DNA from: a virus
Virus record (IMG/VR): IMGVR_UViG_3300035698_022014
Coordinates: 1-64,000 of that record
Length of the DNA: 64,000 bases
Reading direction: 5' to 3' (one strand)
Part shown: in pieces, positions 44,610 to 61,081 of the stretch
Position numbering within the stretch: the stretch's first letter is position 1
How the letters are laid out: each line of letters opens with the position of its first letter
Made by a program: the position numbers and the translations under genes
Notes under the pieces: generated by a model
Databases searched by the model: none
What the model saw: only the letters and a program-made list of their open reading frames with translations
What the model was told of the DNA's origin: nothing

Positions 44610-46418
44610 TCAAGCGAAAAAGTCTTCCAATGTGTCCACCTTTGTGGCAGACCACCCCAATGAATCGAGAATGTTTTGAATTGGATCTAAGAACACTTTT
44701 GAGAACTGTTTCTCTCTATCAACGTAAATGTCTATTTCCATTTCTGTGGGAGGACTCTCAATGAACGAGATTATATTTTCGCGAAGAGGATTCGGCAGCT
44801 TCAAATACACAAACTTGATCTTGTCTCCTGACTGTATTAGGGGATAACGGTTAACGAGGTCATTATCCACAGTCCACTTGTTTGATAGAAGACAACCACG
44901 GATGTGAATTGGACAGGCCTTCTTGTATATCGTTCTTGGATCTGCATAGCCATCCACGTCGTTGGTTCCAGAGACCTTGGCTATATGCTGAACAGGCAGA
45001 CTAAAAAACTCCTCCTTGAAGTCTCTTATAAATTCCTGAGTCTCAGATTCACCTTGTGTGACAATAATCTTAAACGCCTCAAAGAACTTCTTTCTACAAA
45101 TTTCAGGCGTAGAGCTTCTTGCTGCATCAATGCCCGTGACAGACACTTTTGGCTCATCATAGTGAACACCCTCGCTGTTAAGGACATTTAAGATGTATCG
45201 CTTCTTTGCAACAAAGATGGCTTTGTCTGCAATCTTTTCACGCTTCATTTTCATTGCGTTACGATATGCGCCCATTCTTTCAGCTAAATCATCATATGCA
45301 TCATCAAGCAACGGTTCAATCTTTTCTTTACATACCTTATCAATAAAAGACTCGCCTTGCTCGCGCGTAACATTGACGGTTCCAAACACCTTTTCTACAA
45401 GCGGACCAAGATTGACATACACGCTGTCTGTATCACAATACACACAATAATCAACGTCTGTTGTTTTGAGCACCTTGTTCACATACAAGTTAATTGCCTG
45501 TGCGGCCCATTTTGTGGATAGCTGTCCTGATGTTGTGATTCCCTCTGCCATGTCACTAATATAGTAGATGAAAAATGCATTGGCTGTACTCCCATAAAGT
45601 CCGTTCATTAGAATCTTGATAGACATTTGACTGTTGTGTAGCTGGGTTATCAGCTTTTTCAATCGTACAATTTCGTCTTTCGTTGTTGCTGTCTCAAGCT
45701 CAGACTCAGCTATAAGCATGTTTACTTTGATCTCTGCACGCTCGTCGTAGTAGCCTTGAATGATCTGAGGAATGATCCCCTCACGTTCTTTGGAGAAGCA
45801 CGCTCCATTTGCTGCTACTGCATATTTGGTTGTGTTTCTGTATTTCCCATCAAGTACAATCTGCTGTGACACATCTTCTTTTACGTTGTGTTGATACGTT
45901 TCTGGTGACATGTTGTATTGCATCATTAAGTGTGGATAGAGGCTGTTAAGGTCAAAGGACACAACCCAATCCTTCATTCCCTTTTGTGGATCCTTTACAT
46001 ATCCACCAACGATACTCGTTGCACGTTGCTCAGATGTGGACTTGACGAATGGTACACGTCCTTGATCCATTAGAGCTCTGAATATAGTTGTGTCCCACAG
46101 TCCCACAGTTCCAAACGCCTCGTTAAAATTCACACCACTCTTGTATGCAACAGTAAACGACAGTGCGAGAAGGGCTGCTTGTTCTTCGAACATCTCAACA
46201 AGTCTAGTATCATATAAGTTGTAATCTAATCCAAGCTGATGATATTCGCGATCAGCAAGATCGGAATACTTGCGATGCATTTCAAGCAACTGCTTGTCTG
46301 TTAGGTCTTTCATATCTTCCATAGAGTCTCCAAGATTGGTTATTTTTTTGTAGAAGGGGGAACCACAGTACAACGGAACATCAATTCTGACGCTTAACAG
46401 AAATTGTAATAGACGCAA
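44610..46418 (-). CDS. 43: DNA polymerase gp43, C-terminal part (exonuclease III motif and polymerase domain)
   Basis: Family B polymerase motifs: exo III YNLYD (~66-70), motif A VVSFDLNSLYPHLM (Asp156), motif B KILMNGLYGS, motif C YCDTDSVYV, and a C-terminal LEDFFA clamp-binding tail. Residues 1-38 (LRLLQFLLSVRIDVPLYCG...) have no counterpart in other gp43 proteins. It is in the +1 frame relative to 46420-47466, two bases away; the first possible start is TTG 46418 without a ribosome site. Either the two ORFs are one gene with a one-base indel, or the enzyme is split as in some Aeromonas T4-like phages. Confidence 0.88.
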   Translation of the reverse strand: MRLLQFLLSVRIDVPLYCGSPFYKKITNLGDSMEDMKDLTDKQLLEMHRKYSDLADREYHQLGLDYNLYDTRLVEMFEEQAALLALSFTVAYKSGVNFNEAFGTVGLWDTTIFRALMDQGRVPFVKSTSEQRATSIVGGYVKDPQKGMKDWVVSFDLNSLYPHLMMQYNMSPETYQHNVKEDVSQQIVLDGKYRNTTKYAVAANGACFSKEREGIIPQIIQGYYDERAEIKVNMLIAESELETATTKDEIVRLKKLITQLHNSQMSIKILMNGLYGSTANAFFIYYISDMAEGITTSGQLSTKWAAQAINLYVNKVLKTTDVDYCVYCDTDSVYVNLGPLVEKVFGTVNVTREQGESFIDKVCKEKIEPLLDDAYDDLAERMGAYRNAMKMKREKIADKAIFVAKKRYILNVLNSEGVHYDEPKVSVTGIDAARSSTPEICRKKFFEAFKIIVTQGESETQEFIRDFKEEFFSLPVQHIAKVSGTNDVDGYADPRTIYKKACPIHIRGCLLSNKWTVDNDLVNRYPLIQSGDKIKFVYLKLPNPLRENIISFIESPPTEMEIDIYVDREKQFSKVFLDPIQNILDSLGWSATKVDTLEDFFA

Positions 46419-46419
46419 A

Positions 46420-47466
46420 CTAGACAGAAAGTCCTCTACGTTGGATCTCTTCTAGTAAAACATCCCTTCGTTTTACATACGTTTCCCCATCTGTCAGTAT
46501 ATCGTCGGGGAGGTCGTGTGATATTTTTACGTCCTTGGCCCCGTCAGAAATGAATCGGTGAGTATCGACTTTGTTTCCGTGTGCCTCATAAGAAAGCTTC
46601 TTTGTCCCCAGCACGACTGCAGCGACGTTGTCGAGCTTATATGACTGCATCGTGCCATATTTGTATCCAAACTTCTTAAACGTATTCATGTAATCAACGA
46701 TACTGATACCACTAATTACATATGTTTTTTGCATCTTCTTGAACATCTCAAATGACCGTTCACGAACGTGGCCCCATGGTGAGAGTCGTTTGACAGCAGC
46801 CATTCCGAGTATGTTTTCAATTCTCTTCACAATGTACGCGATGTCAAATAGCTCGACGTTCCATCCTGTGACGACATCTGGATAGTCACTGCACCACAAA
46901 TCGACAAACCTGTTCAGCATGTCGTACTCTGATTCACATTTGTGGTACTTGATTAATGACGGATCGATTCCTGTAACGGTCTTTTCTGGATCGTAGTCTT
47001 TTGTACCGAACATGTAGTAGTTGGATGATTTAGATGATTTAATTGCAACAGACGTAATCTCGTTGTCCGCATTCTCCATATCAGGCTTTTTCTTGCTGAT
47101 ATCTACCTCAATATCGAAAGTAAAGATGTTGATCAGCGAAGGATCAAAATCAATTGTACCAGGATACATGTCATATGTGAAAGATGCGACGTAATTGGTA
47201 TTGCCACACATGATCATGTTTTGGACGTCTTTATATCTCTCTACAAATTCTGTTGCGCCCTTCATGCTATCACATTGGATAGACTTCAATGGCTTGTCAC
47301 CTATTAACGATACGTGCGATGGCTTTTGATCCCCATTCTGTCGATCCTCTACATAGAATGTAGGCTGATATTTGACCTTCTTGTAGAACCGTTTGCCGTT
47401 GTCATAACCTGTCCATAGTATATCATTTCCATACCGTTCGATCTTTGTATACATCGTGCTGCTCAT
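46420..47466 (-). CDS. 43: DNA polymerase gp43, N-terminal part (exonuclease I and II motifs)
   Basis: 348 residues with exo I FTFDIEVD (Asp118, Glu120) and exo II VTGWNVELFDIAY (Asp208). Up to about residue 298 (YKLDNVAAVVLGTKKLSYEAHGN) it follows gp43 closely. Residues ~299-348 (DTHRFISDGAKDVK...RRGLSV) are extra, and continue in the other frame with ~38 more extra residues before gp43 resumes. So a ~90-residue insertion lies between exo II and exo III and carries a frame change. AAGGAT precedes the ATG at 47466. Exonuclease activity needs both parts. Confidence 0.88.
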   Translation of the reverse strand: MSSTMYTKIERYGNDILWTGYDNGKRFYKKVKYQPTFYVEDRQNGDQKPSHVSLIGDKPLKSIQCDSMKGATEFVERYKDVQNMIMCGNTNYVASFTYDMYPGTIDFDPSLINIFTFDIEVDISKKKPDMENADNEITSVAIKSSKSSNYYMFGTKDYDPEKTVTGIDPSLIKYHKCESEYDMLNRFVDLWCSDYPDVVTGWNVELFDIAYIVKRIENILGMAAVKRLSPWGHVRERSFEMFKKMQKTYVISGISIVDYMNTFKKFGYKYGTMQSYKLDNVAAVVLGTKKLSYEAHGNKVDTHRFISDGAKDVKISHDLPDDILTDGETYVKRRDVLLEEIQRRGLSV

Positions 47467-50901: not shown

Positions 50902-53900
50902 TTAGATTGTAGTCGGGGTGTTCTCTTTAAGATATGCTACAAACTGTTCCATATAAAGAACCAGGCCATCACCCACTAAAAGACCAGCATAACGCTCATC
51001 ATACACTTCACTCACTGTTGCACTTGGAAAAACAACTGCAGGTCCTTGACTTGTTATGTCATAGAGCTCCTTAGGCAGTTTGCCTTCTTGTAGAGCCTCT
51101 TGAAAATCGACATATTCAATTTCATTCGTTTCCACATCTACAATAGGGATCATTCCGTCCCTGAATATAAATGTGGTTGTTGGTGCATAGTTGCTCATTA
51201 ATTCTTCCGTGATGTAATTTTTGAAGGTAGATACCTTGTTGTTATTATTAGAGTATACACCCTCAGCCAGGTGCTTGTCAACGTTTTGTTTTGTGGTTAA
51301 CTCAACTTCGTACACTTGCTGAATGCGCAACTGTGCAGGTGGATTAAACACACACCATTCAGGCGATCTGATACCACCACCTGCTCCAGGAACACCTGCA
51401 ACCTCATAGTCTGTTCTTTTTTTCCCAAGGTTAACATCCATCGAGAACAAATAGCCTTTTTGGCCTGCACGTCTTGAGTAGCCGCCATTAGAAACATATT
51501 GCAACGCTTTATCGACCTTGTTGCTGAAATATATACCATCGCCAAGCATTCTACCCACAACACCTGAATCAGAAGGCTTGATGACTCTGAACCCATATCT
51601 CAAAATCATCGATGCTGCAATACCGCCTGTGCCATGGTAAGCAGGTTCTACTGTTCCATCACCAAACTTATTGTTACGGAAGTCGTCAAACAGAGGGTTG
51701 TCTGTTGTTCCGTCATACACGTTTAGAATCTTAGGAAACACATCGCCATGCTTTCCTGCATGGTCTCTTTGAATGATGGTTTTGTTCAGTGCATTCACGT
51801 TTATAGTATCGTTTTTTGCAACATCCGGTTCGGGAAGAATTGTCCCTTTCTGAGCAATTGTAGCCTTTGCACGCGCAAAGAACTGCGTATACGTCTCGCC
51901 CTTCTTTTTCTTTGATACTGTGCCTGATACAATTGCAGATAAATCAATGTCGTTATACAAAAACAACTGCTTTAATCTATTTTTATCAATTTTATCGAAC
52001 GGTTTAATGTCTCCGCTAGAAATTTCATCTATCAAAACTTGTGAGCCGACAAGTGACATTCTAATCTTCTGTACGACGTGAGGTGCAAGTCCATCGATGA
52101 TGTCATTAACATAATCTTCGACATCTGTGCCAATAGCGTCAAGAATGATTCCTGTCAGCACTTCAACATATTTTCCCTTGTTGTCCTTGTTGATATCTTT
52201 ATACAAATCTGCACTCATGATGTATTTTTTGTTTGAGGATTTTGCGAACCTCATCCATTCTAATACTGTCTCTGATGTTGCACTTGAAAGAAGGTTCATG
52301 ATAGTATTGCCACCCTTTGACGTATCAAAATCAAAACCAGTGTCTTTCTTTGCAATGATCAATGACGCTTTGGCCAAAGCGTCATTGATCTTGTCTTTAT
52401 CACCAGGCGCAAAACGTGCGACACTTACATTACCGTAGAAATCGTTTCTCGATTCAAGGAAGTTTGCTAACACCTGTGTATCAAGATCAGCAACACCGTC
52501 ACGTCGAACCTTAACACCTACTAGTGCTACATCACTAGGGAAATTGTCCATCATTTGCTCAAGATCAATGTTAAGCGTTCTAACAACATTGACAATTTTG
52601 TCAGGATTGTTAGCGCCGATAATTCTACCAATGGCTGATTTTTCAAAACCTACATCTACAAGGTCCGCTGCATAGCGGTCGTGCAACAGCTCAAAGAGCA
52701 CGCCGCCGTTTTGAGGAGCCTGTGTATTGTACACCTCTTCCTTTGTGAATTCTTCAAACAATTTTGGAACGATAGAAGCCTCATATGTAGGAAATAAATC
52801 AACTCGAATGAAGTATTGAGCCATTTCCTCAATGCGGGCAATAGTTGCCCGTTTAAATAACTCGGGATTATAACCAATTGTTGATCTACTATTTCCTGAT
52901 ACTATAAGGAGCCTGATAAACGAACCCGTAAACATGCCATCGCTGACCATATCATTATATACAGTTGATAAGAAATCTATTGATTGTGCAGCAACAAAAT
53001 CTAACAAAATCGAACCATCACCGTATGTATATCTGATATTTCCATCAGGGTATTGTCGTATGATGCCATTAAACACGTTTTTAATGGGTATTTTACTTGA
53101 TGTTTCTGGATCAGAGACCATGAACGAAATCAATCTTCTTTTTTGTTTTTCCTCAACAGTTTTGTTGTATACTTCTGACAGAAGATAATTATTATTTTTA
53201 TTATTTATATATACGATACGCTTTATTAGTGGATCTTTTGCCTCTATTTCAAGTGCAGCATGTACAAGCCCTTCTATAGATGATTGGCGATAGGATGCTG
53301 TATTACCACTGCTGTATATCTGATCGACGAACATTTCAAGAAAACCAATTGGCGTATATTTAGTCTTCCGTACAGCATTAGCTTGTTTAAGCACTGATGT
53401 AAAATCTTGGGAGGTGTCACGATCTCTAAAAGCTTGAAAATAATTTTCAACGTTGTACACTGTTTTATATATTGCTTCATATGCTTTGCGAGGAGCATCA
53501 GGTAGTTTAACAGCATAAAGCAAGGTATCTGCAAGATTGTATTTTGTTTTGATAAATTTAAGGGCCGCTGCTTCAAGTCTGTAATTATGATTTATATCGT
53601 CTGTGTGTATATCTATAAGGATCTTTATGCCCTCATCAATCAATTGATCTATATCGATGTTACTTGCAACTAATGCCTGCGCTGCCTCTCTTTCCTTCTG
53701 ATCAGCAGCAGCTTGGTCATCAATCACCTTCTGATCAATAGCAGCCTGAGCGTCAATCGCTTGTTGTGCTTGTTGTGCAGCAGCTTGTTTAATCAGTTTT
53801 TGACGTTGGTAGTAATTCAGCTTCGGTGCTGTAGGTGTAGCAACAACAGGGTCAACTGGTGCGCCTGTCAGTGCCGCAAGCTTCTTCAGTTTTTGACGTT

Positions 53901-54615
53901 GATAATAGTTCATTGGTGGCGCAACAGCAGGTGTTGGAGCTGTACCGACCTGAGCTGATGGATCAACAATTGGTGTTGGCACTGCAGGCACTGCAGGAGT
54001 TGCAGCTGTGGCCATAGGAGACATTCCAGCAGGCTGTGGTGTTATTTCTGTCAACCCAAAGAATCTCTTGGCATATTTTTGATAGTCGCCACCACCATCA
54101 ACTGTATTGACTCTCTTCTTCAATTGAACAGCAAACCTGGAAACATCAACAGTCGTTCCGCCACCACCTACGAAATCATCAAATACTTGACGCATCTTTG
54201 TATCTTTAATGTTCAATCGGAAACTTGGAACCATCCCTCTAAGCCATCCTGCAACAACGTTCGAGTCAATTGAATCGATTTGGCCTGATTTCAACTTAAA
54301 AAGGAATTTCGTTATTTCATTTGCTGTGATGTCCTGTTTGAAGAATCCAGCCTCATGAGCCAACTTAACAGACAAAGAAATGTCGTGGTTATCATCACCA
54401 ATTGATCCAAGACGTACCTGTTTGTCTTTGCGCAAGAACTTGATAATTGTTCCACGTTGGGTGGCGTTCGTTGCGTTAATCATCCCCAACATTCCGAGGA
54501 AGTTGAACATGAAAGCAGCAGCAACTCGATCTTTATCTGCGAGTAATGCTGCTCTTTCTGCATCGTTAGAGTAAAGAGAATTTTCCCCAAGAAAAGATTT
54601 GAAGTTTTTGGTCAT
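50902..54615 (-). CDS. Giant PARP-like ADP-ribosyltransferase, likely head-packaged (1237 aa)
   Basis: Residues ~985-1110 carry the PARP-type catalytic fold: EPAYHGTGGIAASMILRYGF (His994), MLGDGIYFSN (Tyr1029), GYLFSMDVNLG and SPEWCVFNPPAQLRIQQVYEVEL (Glu1086), giving the H-Y-E triad. This predicts ADP-ribose transfer from NAD to a target. The N-terminus MTKNFKSFLGE-N resembles T4 capsid-targeting sequences (MKTYQEFIAE-A) with an L-x-E cleavage point. A Pro/Ala linker at ~193-265 holds two NYYQRQKL motifs (236, 267). The middle ~600 residues are helical and unassigned. A GATAAATA late box is 40 bases upstream. T4 Alt, a smaller packaged ADP-ribosyltransferase of a different type, is the nearest functional analogue. 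Confidence 0.7.
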   Translation of the reverse strand: MTKNFKSFLGENSLYSNDAERAALLADKDRVAAAFMFNFLGMLGMINATNATQRGTIIKFLRKDKQVRLGSIGDDNHDISLSVKLAHEAGFFKQDITANEITKFLFKLKSGQIDSIDSNVVAGWLRGMVPSFRLNIKDTKMRQVFDDFVGGGGTTVDVSRFAVQLKKRVNTVDGGGDYQKYAKRFFGLTEITPQPAGMSPMATAATPAVPAVPTPIVDPSAQVGTAPTPAVAPPMNYYQRQKLKKLAALTGAPVDPVVATPTAPKLNYYQRQKLIKQAAAQQAQQAIDAQAAIDQKVIDDQAAADQKEREAAQALVASNIDIDQLIDEGIKILIDIHTDDINHNYRLEAAALKFIKTKYNLADTLLYAVKLPDAPRKAYEAIYKTVYNVENYFQAFRDRDTSQDFTSVLKQANAVRKTKYTPIGFLEMFVDQIYSSGNTASYRQSSIEGLVHAALEIEAKDPLIKRIVYINNKNNNYLLSEVYNKTVEEKQKRRLISFMVSDPETSSKIPIKNVFNGIIRQYPDGNIRYTYGDGSILLDFVAAQSIDFLSTVYNDMVSDGMFTGSFIRLLIVSGNSRSTIGYNPELFKRATIARIEEMAQYFIRVDLFPTYEASIVPKLFEEFTKEEVYNTQAPQNGGVLFELLHDRYAADLVDVGFEKSAIGRIIGANNPDKIVNVVRTLNIDLEQMMDNFPSDVALVGVKVRRDGVADLDTQVLANFLESRNDFYGNVSVARFAPGDKDKINDALAKASLIIAKKDTGFDFDTSKGGNTIMNLLSSATSETVLEWMRFAKSSNKKYIMSADLYKDINKDNKGKYVEVLTGIILDAIGTDVEDYVNDIIDGLAPHVVQKIRMSLVGSQVLIDEISSGDIKPFDKIDKNRLKQLFLYNDIDLSAIVSGTVSKKKKGETYTQFFARAKATIAQKGTILPEPDVAKNDTINVNALNKTIIQRDHAGKHGDVFPKILNVYDGTTDNPLFDDFRNNKFGDGTVEPAYHGTGGIAASMILRYGFRVIKPSDSGVVGRMLGDGIYFSNKVDKALQYVSNGGYSRRAGQKGYLFSMDVNLGKKRTDYEVAGVPGAGGGIRSPEWCVFNPPAQLRIQQVYEVELTTKQNVDKHLAEGVYSNNNNKVSTFKNYITEELMSNYAPTTTFIFRDGMIPIVDVETNEIEYVDFQEALQEGKLPKELYDITSQGPAVVFPSATVSEVYDERYAGLLVGDGLVLYMEQFVAYLKENTPTTI

Positions 54616-54655: not shown

Positions 54656-54663
54656 TATTTATC
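54656..54663 (-). promoter_or_regulatory. Late promoter box GATAAATA for the PARP-like gene
   Basis: Minus-strand GATAAATA lies 40 bases before ATG 54615, and AAGGAT serves as ribosome site. Late expression is what a virion-packaged enzyme would need. Confidence 0.6.
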
Positions 54664-60460: not shown

Positions 60461-61081
60461 ATGATATCATTTAAACAGCACATGAACGAGAACTATAAGA
60501 ACTTCATAGGTCCCGCTGAAACAAGAGTTCAACGTGAGAAATGGATTGATCAAGTGTGGGACATCGTACAGAAGTCTTATGCACCGATTGGTGGGATTCA
60601 AGGAAGTGGTTTTGGCTCCAAAAAAGACATGATTGAAAAGATCCCCTTCTGGAAATTGTACACCAAGGGGGATAAACTTCTAGCTGCAGCCTTCTATAAA
60701 GATAAGGGTGGGCGAAAGTCAGTTGCAATTGCAACTGACGGGTCTGATGCTGGCAAGAAAGTTGTCGTGGATATATTCAAAGCGTCTCTTGGCGTTTCAT
60801 ATGGTGAAAAGTCAGGGCCTGCTCTTGCAATGATGGTAAAAACAGTCCCGTGGGACGTGTTGCAGAACTTCATGCTCACACCAAAGCAAATAGCAAGAAT
60901 TAGTGGCGTGGATGTAATGACAGTGGCGGAGTTTGGTGTAGAACAGTTGAATCCAAAAGATAAATTTACATACGATAAATTTCCTCAATTACGTCCTTTC
61001 TTCTATGTGAGATCACTTGGTGGAGAGATGCATCTGAAAGCTGCGATGGGAACTCCTAATCTTGATATAATTTCAAAATAG
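60461..61081 (+). CDS. Late protein, candidate internal head protein (206 aa)
   Basis: It begins MISFKQHMNE-NYKNF, resembling the T4 internal-protein leader MKTYQEFIAE with an M-x-E cleavage-like site. A GATAAATA late box is just upstream. The body is mixed alpha/beta (WIDQVWDIVQKSYAPIGGIQGSGF, FWKLYTKGDKLLAAAFYKDKGGRKSVAIATDGS), with some resemblance to acetyltransferase-like folds (strand with K.VAIATDG.). Whether it is an injected effector or a scaffold component is unknown. No named family is certain. Confidence 0.6.
   Translation: MISFKQHMNENYKNFIGPAETRVQREKWIDQVWDIVQKSYAPIGGIQGSGFGSKKDMIEKIPFWKLYTKGDKLLAAAFYKDKGGRKSVAIATDGSDAGKKVVVDIFKASLGVSYGEKSGPALAMMVKTVPWDVLQNFMLTPKQIARISGVDVMTVAEFGVEQLNPKDKFTYDKFPQLRPFFYVRSLGGEMHLKAAMGTPNLDIISK

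What the first reader, a model, noticed from the sequence alone, without database searches (positions are those of the whole stretch)
50902..54615. Late-expressed giant PARP-like ADP-ribosyltransferase, a candidate injected effector
A 1237-residue protein carries a PARP-type H-Y-E catalytic set (His994, Tyr1029, Glu1086), a capsid-targeting-like N-terminus (MTKNFKSFLGE-N) and a late promoter box. T4 packages and injects Alt, a different-type ADP-ribosyltransferase that modifies host RNA polymerase. This may be an independent solution using the PARP fold, with ~600 unassigned residues that could choose the target. Seen: motifs, leader, promoter. Known: Alt biology. Inferred: packaging and target.
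Basis: partly seen in the sequence, partly recalled or inferred. Interest (0 to 1): 0.88.

Follow-up and report, generated by a model that had tools for sequence, protein, structure and literature searches.

The report
Phage PARP enzyme tagged for injection
A T4-like phage gene encodes a giant PARP-type enzyme that, judging by conserved protease-cut tags at both ends, its own late promoter and relatives built on the same front end as T4's injected enzyme Alt, is very probably packed into the phage head and delivered into bacteria to modify host molecules; whether it is really in the particle, and what it modifies, has not been tested.

Summary
In detail: a 1237-aa ORF (minus strand, 54615-50902) has a real PARP domain (Pfam E 2e-8; model VIA Z 15.5 to human PARP1) with His994/Tyr1029/Glu1086. 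Across 39 non-redundant relatives Tyr and Glu are invariant and His is kept in 38. The leader is a conserved prohead-protease site ([LI]xE|N[ST]LY, 34/39 against 1% background), and a late box (GATAAATA) lies 40 nt upstream (T4-type box in 31/39 relatives, 29/302 control windows).

Two new findings favour packaging. A second site, FKxF[LI]xE, lies in a disordered linker between the PARP domain and a ~90-aa tail (32/39); T4 Alt is likewise cut at both ends. In one phage an Alt-type and a PARP-type gene lie in tandem and share a 66%-identical N-terminal module, homologous to Alt's N-domain and to MS-confirmed virion proteins of Ackermannviridae.

Corrections: it is not wholly "independent" of Alt (some relatives use Alt's N-module; Aeromonas phages carry both); phage PARPs and head-packaged ARTs were already proposed; the target is unknown; no virion proteome was found. 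The window's own N-module shows no detectable Alt homology.

Verdict: new variant of the Alt-type injected ADP-ribosyltransferase; packaging probable, activity and target inferred.

The parts
50902..54615 (-). PARP-type ADP-ribosyltransferase gene, 1237 aa
   Evidence: PHROG_18612 E 5.5e-134; Pfam PARP
54656..54663 (-). T4-type late promoter box GATAAATA, 40 nt upstream of the ATG
   Evidence: conserved box in 31/39 relatives against 29/302 control windows
54583..54615 (-). N-terminal leader, residues 1-11 (MTKNFKSFLGE), capsid-targeting-like, ends at the predicted prohead-protease site LGE|N
   Evidence: P1 Glu 35/37, P1' Asn 33/37, [LI]xE 34/39; second best of 283 genes in G001 with a PSSM made only from the internal motif
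54136..54582 (-). Conserved N-terminal module, residues 12-160, of unknown fold
   Evidence: present in 36 of 39 relatives; dN/dS 0.049 against L012; no homology to Alt N-domain detected
52036..54135 (-). Middle region, residues 161-860, variable in length and sequence, begins with a Pro/Ala-rich linker; candidate targeting part
   Evidence: alignment; dN/dS 0.42 against L012
51295..51780 (-). PARP catalytic domain, residues 946-1107
   Evidence: Pfam, AF2 model pLDDT 83, VIA Z 15.5 to PARP1, dN/dS 0.048
51634..51636 (-). His994 codon (PARP H-Y-E triad)
   Evidence: 38/39 relatives
51529..51531 (-). Tyr1029 codon
   Evidence: 39/39
51358..51360 (-). Glu1086 codon
   Evidence: 39/39
51202..51228 (-). 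Internal capsid-targeting-like motif and predicted second protease site, residues 1130-1138 (TFKNYITE|E)
   Evidence: F1131 35/38, E1137 34/38, [LI]xE 32/39 against 1.0% background; in a low-confidence linker of the model
50905..51180 (-). C-terminal tail domain, residues 1146-1237, predicted to be cut off in the prohead
   Evidence: conserved in the T4-like family only; separate fold in the model; encoded as its own ORF in phage OC
50849..50885 (-). Hairpin 17 nt after the stop codon, also present in relative G001

Best explanation
The protein is a head-packaged, injected effector of the Alt type that uses a PARP (H-Y-E) ADP-ribosyltransferase domain. Made late from its own promoter, it is drawn into the prohead core by an N-terminal, and probably also an internal, capsid-targeting motif. 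The gp21-type prohead protease then cuts after LGE-11 and after ITE-1137, removing the leader and the ~100 C-terminal residues. The mature middle piece (N-module, variable region, PARP domain) is packaged with the DNA and enters the next host, where it uses NAD+ to ADP-ribosylate one or more host macromolecules before phage genes are expressed. Shown: sequence anatomy, fold, conservation, module sharing. Inferred: packaging, cleavage, injection, activity. Target unknown; the fast-evolving middle region is the likeliest place for target choice, and the removable tail is most simply a targeting or inhibitory pro-domain.
For: PARP fold and triad. N-site [LI]xE in 34/39 and C-site in 32/39 against 1.0% per position, matching the published T4 gp21 motif L/I-X-E (PMC9026906). 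T4 Alt is cut at ITE-6 and LTE-619 (PMC5694885). Leaders differ in length (about 4 to 31 aa as called) but keep LxE|N. A PSSM made only from the internal motif ranks this gene's leader 2nd of 283 genes in relative G001 (p about 2e-4) and T4 IPII/IPIII 4th-5th of 250. Late box in 31/39 relatives against 29/302 controls. In L031 an Alt-type ART and a PARP gene lie in tandem with a 66%-identical 200-aa N-module; the module is homologous to Alt's N-domain (hhalign E 1.1e-8; 9.6e-7 without the Alt-type row; 30 column shuffles best score 18.7 against 49.9) and to LIMEstone1 ORF082, found in virions by mass spectrometry (PMC3296691). The tree nests the Alt-module proteins pf16/L050 with L032/L033, which carry the window-type module (support 99/98), so the two N-modules replace each other. 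Portal-adjacent PARP relatives in SPO1-type phages stop 17-20 aa after the catalytic motif and lack the tail.
Against: No virion proteome of a carrier phage was found. The window's own N-module has no detectable homology to Alt's N-domain, and its tail none to Alt's tail. The gene lies among replication and recombination genes, not head genes. The PSSM recovers T4 IPI and gp24 only weakly and Alt not at all. P1' is Asn, whereas the T4 internal-protein sites read here have Ala. One relative (L038) lacks the catalytic His.
Confidence: 0.72

Rival explanations
1. A late-expressed ADP-ribosyltransferase that works inside the producing cell (for example on host translation, RNA polymerase or defence) and is not packaged.
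For: Late box only shows late expression; neighbours are replication genes; in four Aeromonas phages an ADP-ribosylglycohydrolase gene lies directly upstream, as for a reversible intracellular modification.
Against: Two conserved prohead-protease sites in otherwise variable sequence and the N-module shared with Alt and with MS-confirmed virion proteins are not expected.
Confidence: 0.17
2. A packaged head protein whose main role is structural or DNA-associated, or which modifies phage components, rather than an injected host modifier.
For: Packaging evidence as for the best explanation; no host target is known.
Against: Strong purifying selection on the PARP domain (dN/dS 0.048) with a conserved triad; middle region evolves fast (dN/dS 0.42), as for a host-facing part.
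Confidence: 0.08
3. A variant of the best explanation (not exclusive of it): the injected enzyme modifies a nucleic acid or a defence component rather than a transcription protein as Alt does.
For: PARP-clade ARTs modify proteins and nucleic acids (established knowledge); the middle region is unlike Alt.
Against: No direct evidence for any target.
Confidence: 0.4

Closest known systems
T4 Alt (RSE-clade ADP-ribosyltransferase, phrog_802, PF03496)
   Same: T4-like phage, late gene outside the head cluster, short N-terminal LxE leader, second LxE followed by a C-terminal propeptide, ADP-ribosyltransferase domain near the C-terminus; in pf16/L031-type relatives also the homologous N-module
   Different: Catalytic domain is PARP H-Y-E, not RSE; much larger; the window's N-module and tail show no homology to Alt's
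Aeromonas phage Aeh1 PARP and other PHROG_18612 proteins (Moby, Mendera, Ps15, X1, pf16, OC)
   Same: Same family by sequence; the Aeh1 protein was noted as a PARP in 2014 (PMC4245714)
   Different: Packaging signals, double processing and the Alt-module exchange were not described in the papers read
T4 internal proteins IPI-IPIII (capsid targeting sequence)
   Same: Motif of the type F-x-x-F-[LI]-x-E at the leader and at the internal site
   Different: IPs are small proteins without a PARP domain
Head-packaged phage ARTs / polyvalent and MuF-fused effectors (PMC9503650)
   Same: General proposal that myovirus ARTs are often head-packaged, with the PART family among the commonest viral ARTs
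   Different: No MuF or portal fusion here; delivery by capsid-targeting-like motifs and protease sites
Human PARP1/PARP2 catalytic domain
   Same: Fold and H-Y-E triad; Z 15.5
   Different: Pfam finds no zinc-finger, BRCT or WWE domain; phage-specific flanks

Membership tests
PARP / H-Y-E ADP-ribosyltransferases (PF00644) | Profile match above the curated cut-off | tested here: met
   34.4 bits against 26.7
PARP / H-Y-E ADP-ribosyltransferases (PF00644) | PARP catalytic fold | tested here: met
   AF2 model, VIA Z 15.5, rmsd 3.4, 181 aligned to PARP1
PARP / H-Y-E ADP-ribosyltransferases (PF00644) | His-Tyr-Glu triad | tested here: met
   H994, Y1029, E1086; 38, 39 and 39 of 39
PARP / H-Y-E ADP-ribosyltransferases (PF00644) | NAD-dependent transferase activity, mono or poly | not testable with these tools
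   needs an assay
T4 Alt family | RSE-clade ART domain (phrog_802 / PF03496) | tested here: not met
   No phrog_802 or PF03496 match: not a member of the Alt enzyme family
T4 Alt family | Alt N-terminal module | tested here: inconclusive
   No match for the window protein's N-module (E 0.3, a weak test); met in relative L031 and, through the module profile, pf16/L050
T4 Alt family (delivery features) | gp21-type cleavage motif near both termini | tested here: met
   Motif conserved 34/39 and 32/39; cleavage itself not shown
T4 Alt family (delivery features) | Late promoter | tested here: met
T4 Alt family (delivery features) | Present in virion and injected | not testable with these tools
   no virion proteome of a carrier found
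T4 capsid-targeting-sequence cargo (IPs) | CTS-like motif at the N-terminus followed by LxE | tested here: met
   leader NFKSFLGE; G001 rank 2 of 283
MuF-fused or portal-fused head effectors | Fusion to a MuF or portal domain | tested here: not met
   Pfam at E up to 1 gives PARP and one sub-threshold Collectrin match only

The most novel reading that the evidence does not exclude
T4-like phages use an exchangeable cargo design (protease-cut leader, N-module, variable target-choosing part, interchangeable Alt-type or PARP-type enzyme, removable C-terminal pro-domain) in which the tail keeps the PARP silent in the producing cell and the capsid protease switches it on inside the prohead: a viral PARP zymogen activated by head maturation.
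Probability: 0.3. Interest if true: 0.82.

Novelty: new variant of a known kind. Interest (0 to 1): 0.62.

Why it matters
Alt is the textbook injected ADP-ribosyltransferase of T4. Finding a PARP-type enzyme with the same delivery anatomy, and in one phage in tandem with an Alt-type enzyme on the same N-terminal module, says that the delivery system is modular and the enzyme interchangeable. It gives a concrete, testable case of a PARP acting in bacteria from the first minutes of infection, and a direct way to ask what T4 Alt's two propeptides do, a question left open in PMC5694885.

Tried and rejected
Homology of the C-terminal tail to T4 Alt's tail: not detected with single sequence or profile, so only the architecture is compared. 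Homology of the window-type N-module to Alt's N-domain: not detected. Strict replacement of Alt: rejected, since four Aeromonas phages carry both. PDB sequence matches PP507/DP622/DP221 to the middle region: rejected as chance, as the alignments are scattered helical stretches, most likely of designed proteins; no relevant paper names them. The N-terminal model (residues 1-865) failed once, was blocked twice and was unfinished at the end, so the N-module and middle region have no model. The viral fold search was blocked. The fold search was dominated by PARP hits, so the tail's fold is untested.

Full report
What is there. The ORF at 50902-54615 lies on the minus strand and encodes 1237 aa. 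The window is part of a 75.6-kb IMG/VR virus record of a T4-like phage: baseplate, tail, clamp-loader, DNA polymerase and gp55-like genes were identified, and the nearest named DNA polymerases are about 45% identical, mostly in cyanophages. A close relative is the 208-kb contig G001 (L012, 85% identical over this gene).

PARP domain. Pfam PF00644 matches residues 948-1065 (E 2.1e-8), and PHROG_18612 matches the protein with E 5.5e-134. An AlphaFold2 model of residues 850-1237 (pLDDT 83) aligns with the human PARP1 catalytic domain at Z 15.5. A profile of the family also finds PARP1/2 by sequence (E 1e-7). In 39 non-redundant members Tyr1029 and Glu1086 are invariant and His994 is kept in 38.

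Distribution. Relatives occur in 36 phage records (Aeromonas, Stenotrophomonas, Pseudomonas pf16, Xanthomonas X1, Ochrobactrum OC; weakly Lysinibacillus) and 56 IMG/VR loci, partly the same phages. Several are annotated as PARP or ADP-ribosyltransferase, and the Aeh1 protein was listed as a PARP in 2014 (PMC4245714). Gene neighbours differ but are mostly replication genes (ssb, primase, dexA); in Aeromonas phages an ADP-ribosylglycohydrolase gene lies directly upstream.

Late expression. NATAAATA boxes are enriched upstream of genes in the window (12 against 2.0 expected) and in G001 (49 against 7.2). The PARP gene has GATAAATA 40 nt before its ATG. A T4-type box is found near the start in 31 of 39 relatives, against 29 of 302 control windows, although the neighbouring genes are replication genes.

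N-terminal site. Leaders vary from about four to thirty residues, but the residue at P3 is L, I or V (36 sequences) and at P1 Glu (35 of 37), followed by Asn (33 of 37) and then mostly [ST][LFI][YF]. This is the published T4 gp21 rule, L/I-X-E (PMC9026906).

Between the PARP domain and a ~90-aa C-terminal tail lies FKxF[LI]xE (F1131 35/38, E1137 34/38), inside sequence that is otherwise variable and in the model disordered. It resembles the capsid targeting sequences of T4 internal proteins (MKTYQEFIAE|A, MKTFKEF..., read). A scoring matrix built only from this internal motif ranks the PARP leader 2nd of 283 genes in G001 and IPII/IPIII 4th-5th of 250 in T4. T4 Alt is processed at ITE-6 and LTE-619, losing a short leader and 63 C-terminal residues (PMC5694885): the same layout. 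In 14 records searched the tail domain occurs once in each of 13 and not in T4, always with this enzyme, and as a separate ORF just upstream of it in phage OC. PARP relatives of SPO1-type phages, one of them encoded directly before portal and capsid genes, end 17-20 residues after the catalytic motif and have no tail.

Module exchange. In L031 (167.6-kb contig) a 1047-aa Alt-type ART (PF03496) and a PARP gene lie in tandem and share a 66%-identical 200-aa N-terminal module beginning at LNE|VFD. The module is homologous to the N-domain of T4 Alt (hhalign E 1.1e-8; 9.6e-7 without the Alt-type row; shuffled and reversed controls far lower), and to Ackermannviridae proteins; in LIMEstone1 the module (ORF082) and the following ORF081 were found in virions by mass spectrometry (PMC3296691). 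pf16 and L050 carry a version of the module (E 6.6e-7 to the module profile; directly to Alt only E 0.02). In the catalytic-domain tree pf16/L050 group with L032/L033, which have the window-type N-module (99/98). The two N-modules thus replace one another upstream of the same PARP, which suggests equivalent roles in delivery. The window's module itself shows no Alt homology.

Selection. Between window and L012, dN/dS is 0.049 in the N-module, 0.048 in the PARP domain, 0.17 in the tail and 0.42 in the middle region: an enzyme and a delivery end under constraint, with a fast-evolving middle. That the middle chooses the target is inference.

Mechanism and prior art. The best reading is a head-packaged, doubly processed, injected PARP-type ADP-ribosyltransferase. 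Packaging and processing are inferred from sequence; activity and target are not shown. Head packaging of phage ARTs in general, with the PART family among the commonest viral ARTs, was proposed in PMC9503650. New here, as far as the papers read go, are the double protease-site anatomy of the PARP family, the Alt-module exchange, and the tail as a dedicated, separable domain. Alt is present with PARP in the four Aeromonas phages searched and not found in Ps15, pf16, X1, OC or G001, so the PARP adds to Alt in some phages and stands without it in others. No virion proteome of a carrier was found, so the decisive test remains open.

Noticed in passing
window 60461-61081 (+): 206-aa ORF starting MISFKQHMNENYKNFIG with its own GATAAATA box: a second capsid-targeting-like cargo candidate with the same E|N site; its homologue lies directly downstream of the PARP gene in L016 and ranks first in G001. 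No family match.
   Followed up: partly
window 52357-52390: Loopless perfect 34-bp palindrome inside the PARP gene (codons 742-753); relative L012 has a matching change on both arms that keeps it perfect; absent in L013, L015, L016.
   Followed up: partly
L031 263-3406 and 3463-7584: Tandem Alt-type and PARP-type ART genes sharing a 66%-identical N-terminal module; a gene starting MSFTKFLES with a weak zeta-toxin/P-loop match follows.
   Followed up: yes
L024 3059-7036 and 7117-11088: Two complete PARP-family genes in tandem in one contig.
   Followed up: no
L005 2983-3351: In phage OC the tail domain is a separate ORF directly upstream of the PARP gene.
   Followed up: partly
L001 4906-5787; L007 2890-3804: ADP-ribosylglycohydrolase gene directly upstream of the PARP gene in Aeromonas phages, a possible eraser.
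   Followed up: partly
L006 2772-5390; L064; L066: PARP-domain ORFs of SPO1-type phages with a different N-terminal module; in L006 (LysYB1) directly before portal, protease and capsid genes.
   Followed up: partly
L094 14693-17810 (G001): Run of genes with capsid-targeting-like N-termini (MIRFKQYLSES, MIRYKAY, MKSFKEFNVTEG), nearly all without family matches: possible cargo cluster.
   Followed up: no
L025 2124-5286, L026 5929-9091: PARP-family gene split by a frame change into two ORFs in both contigs; sequence error or real frameshift not decided.
   Followed up: no
window 44610-47466: DNA polymerase gp43 encoded as two adjacent ORFs.
   Followed up: no
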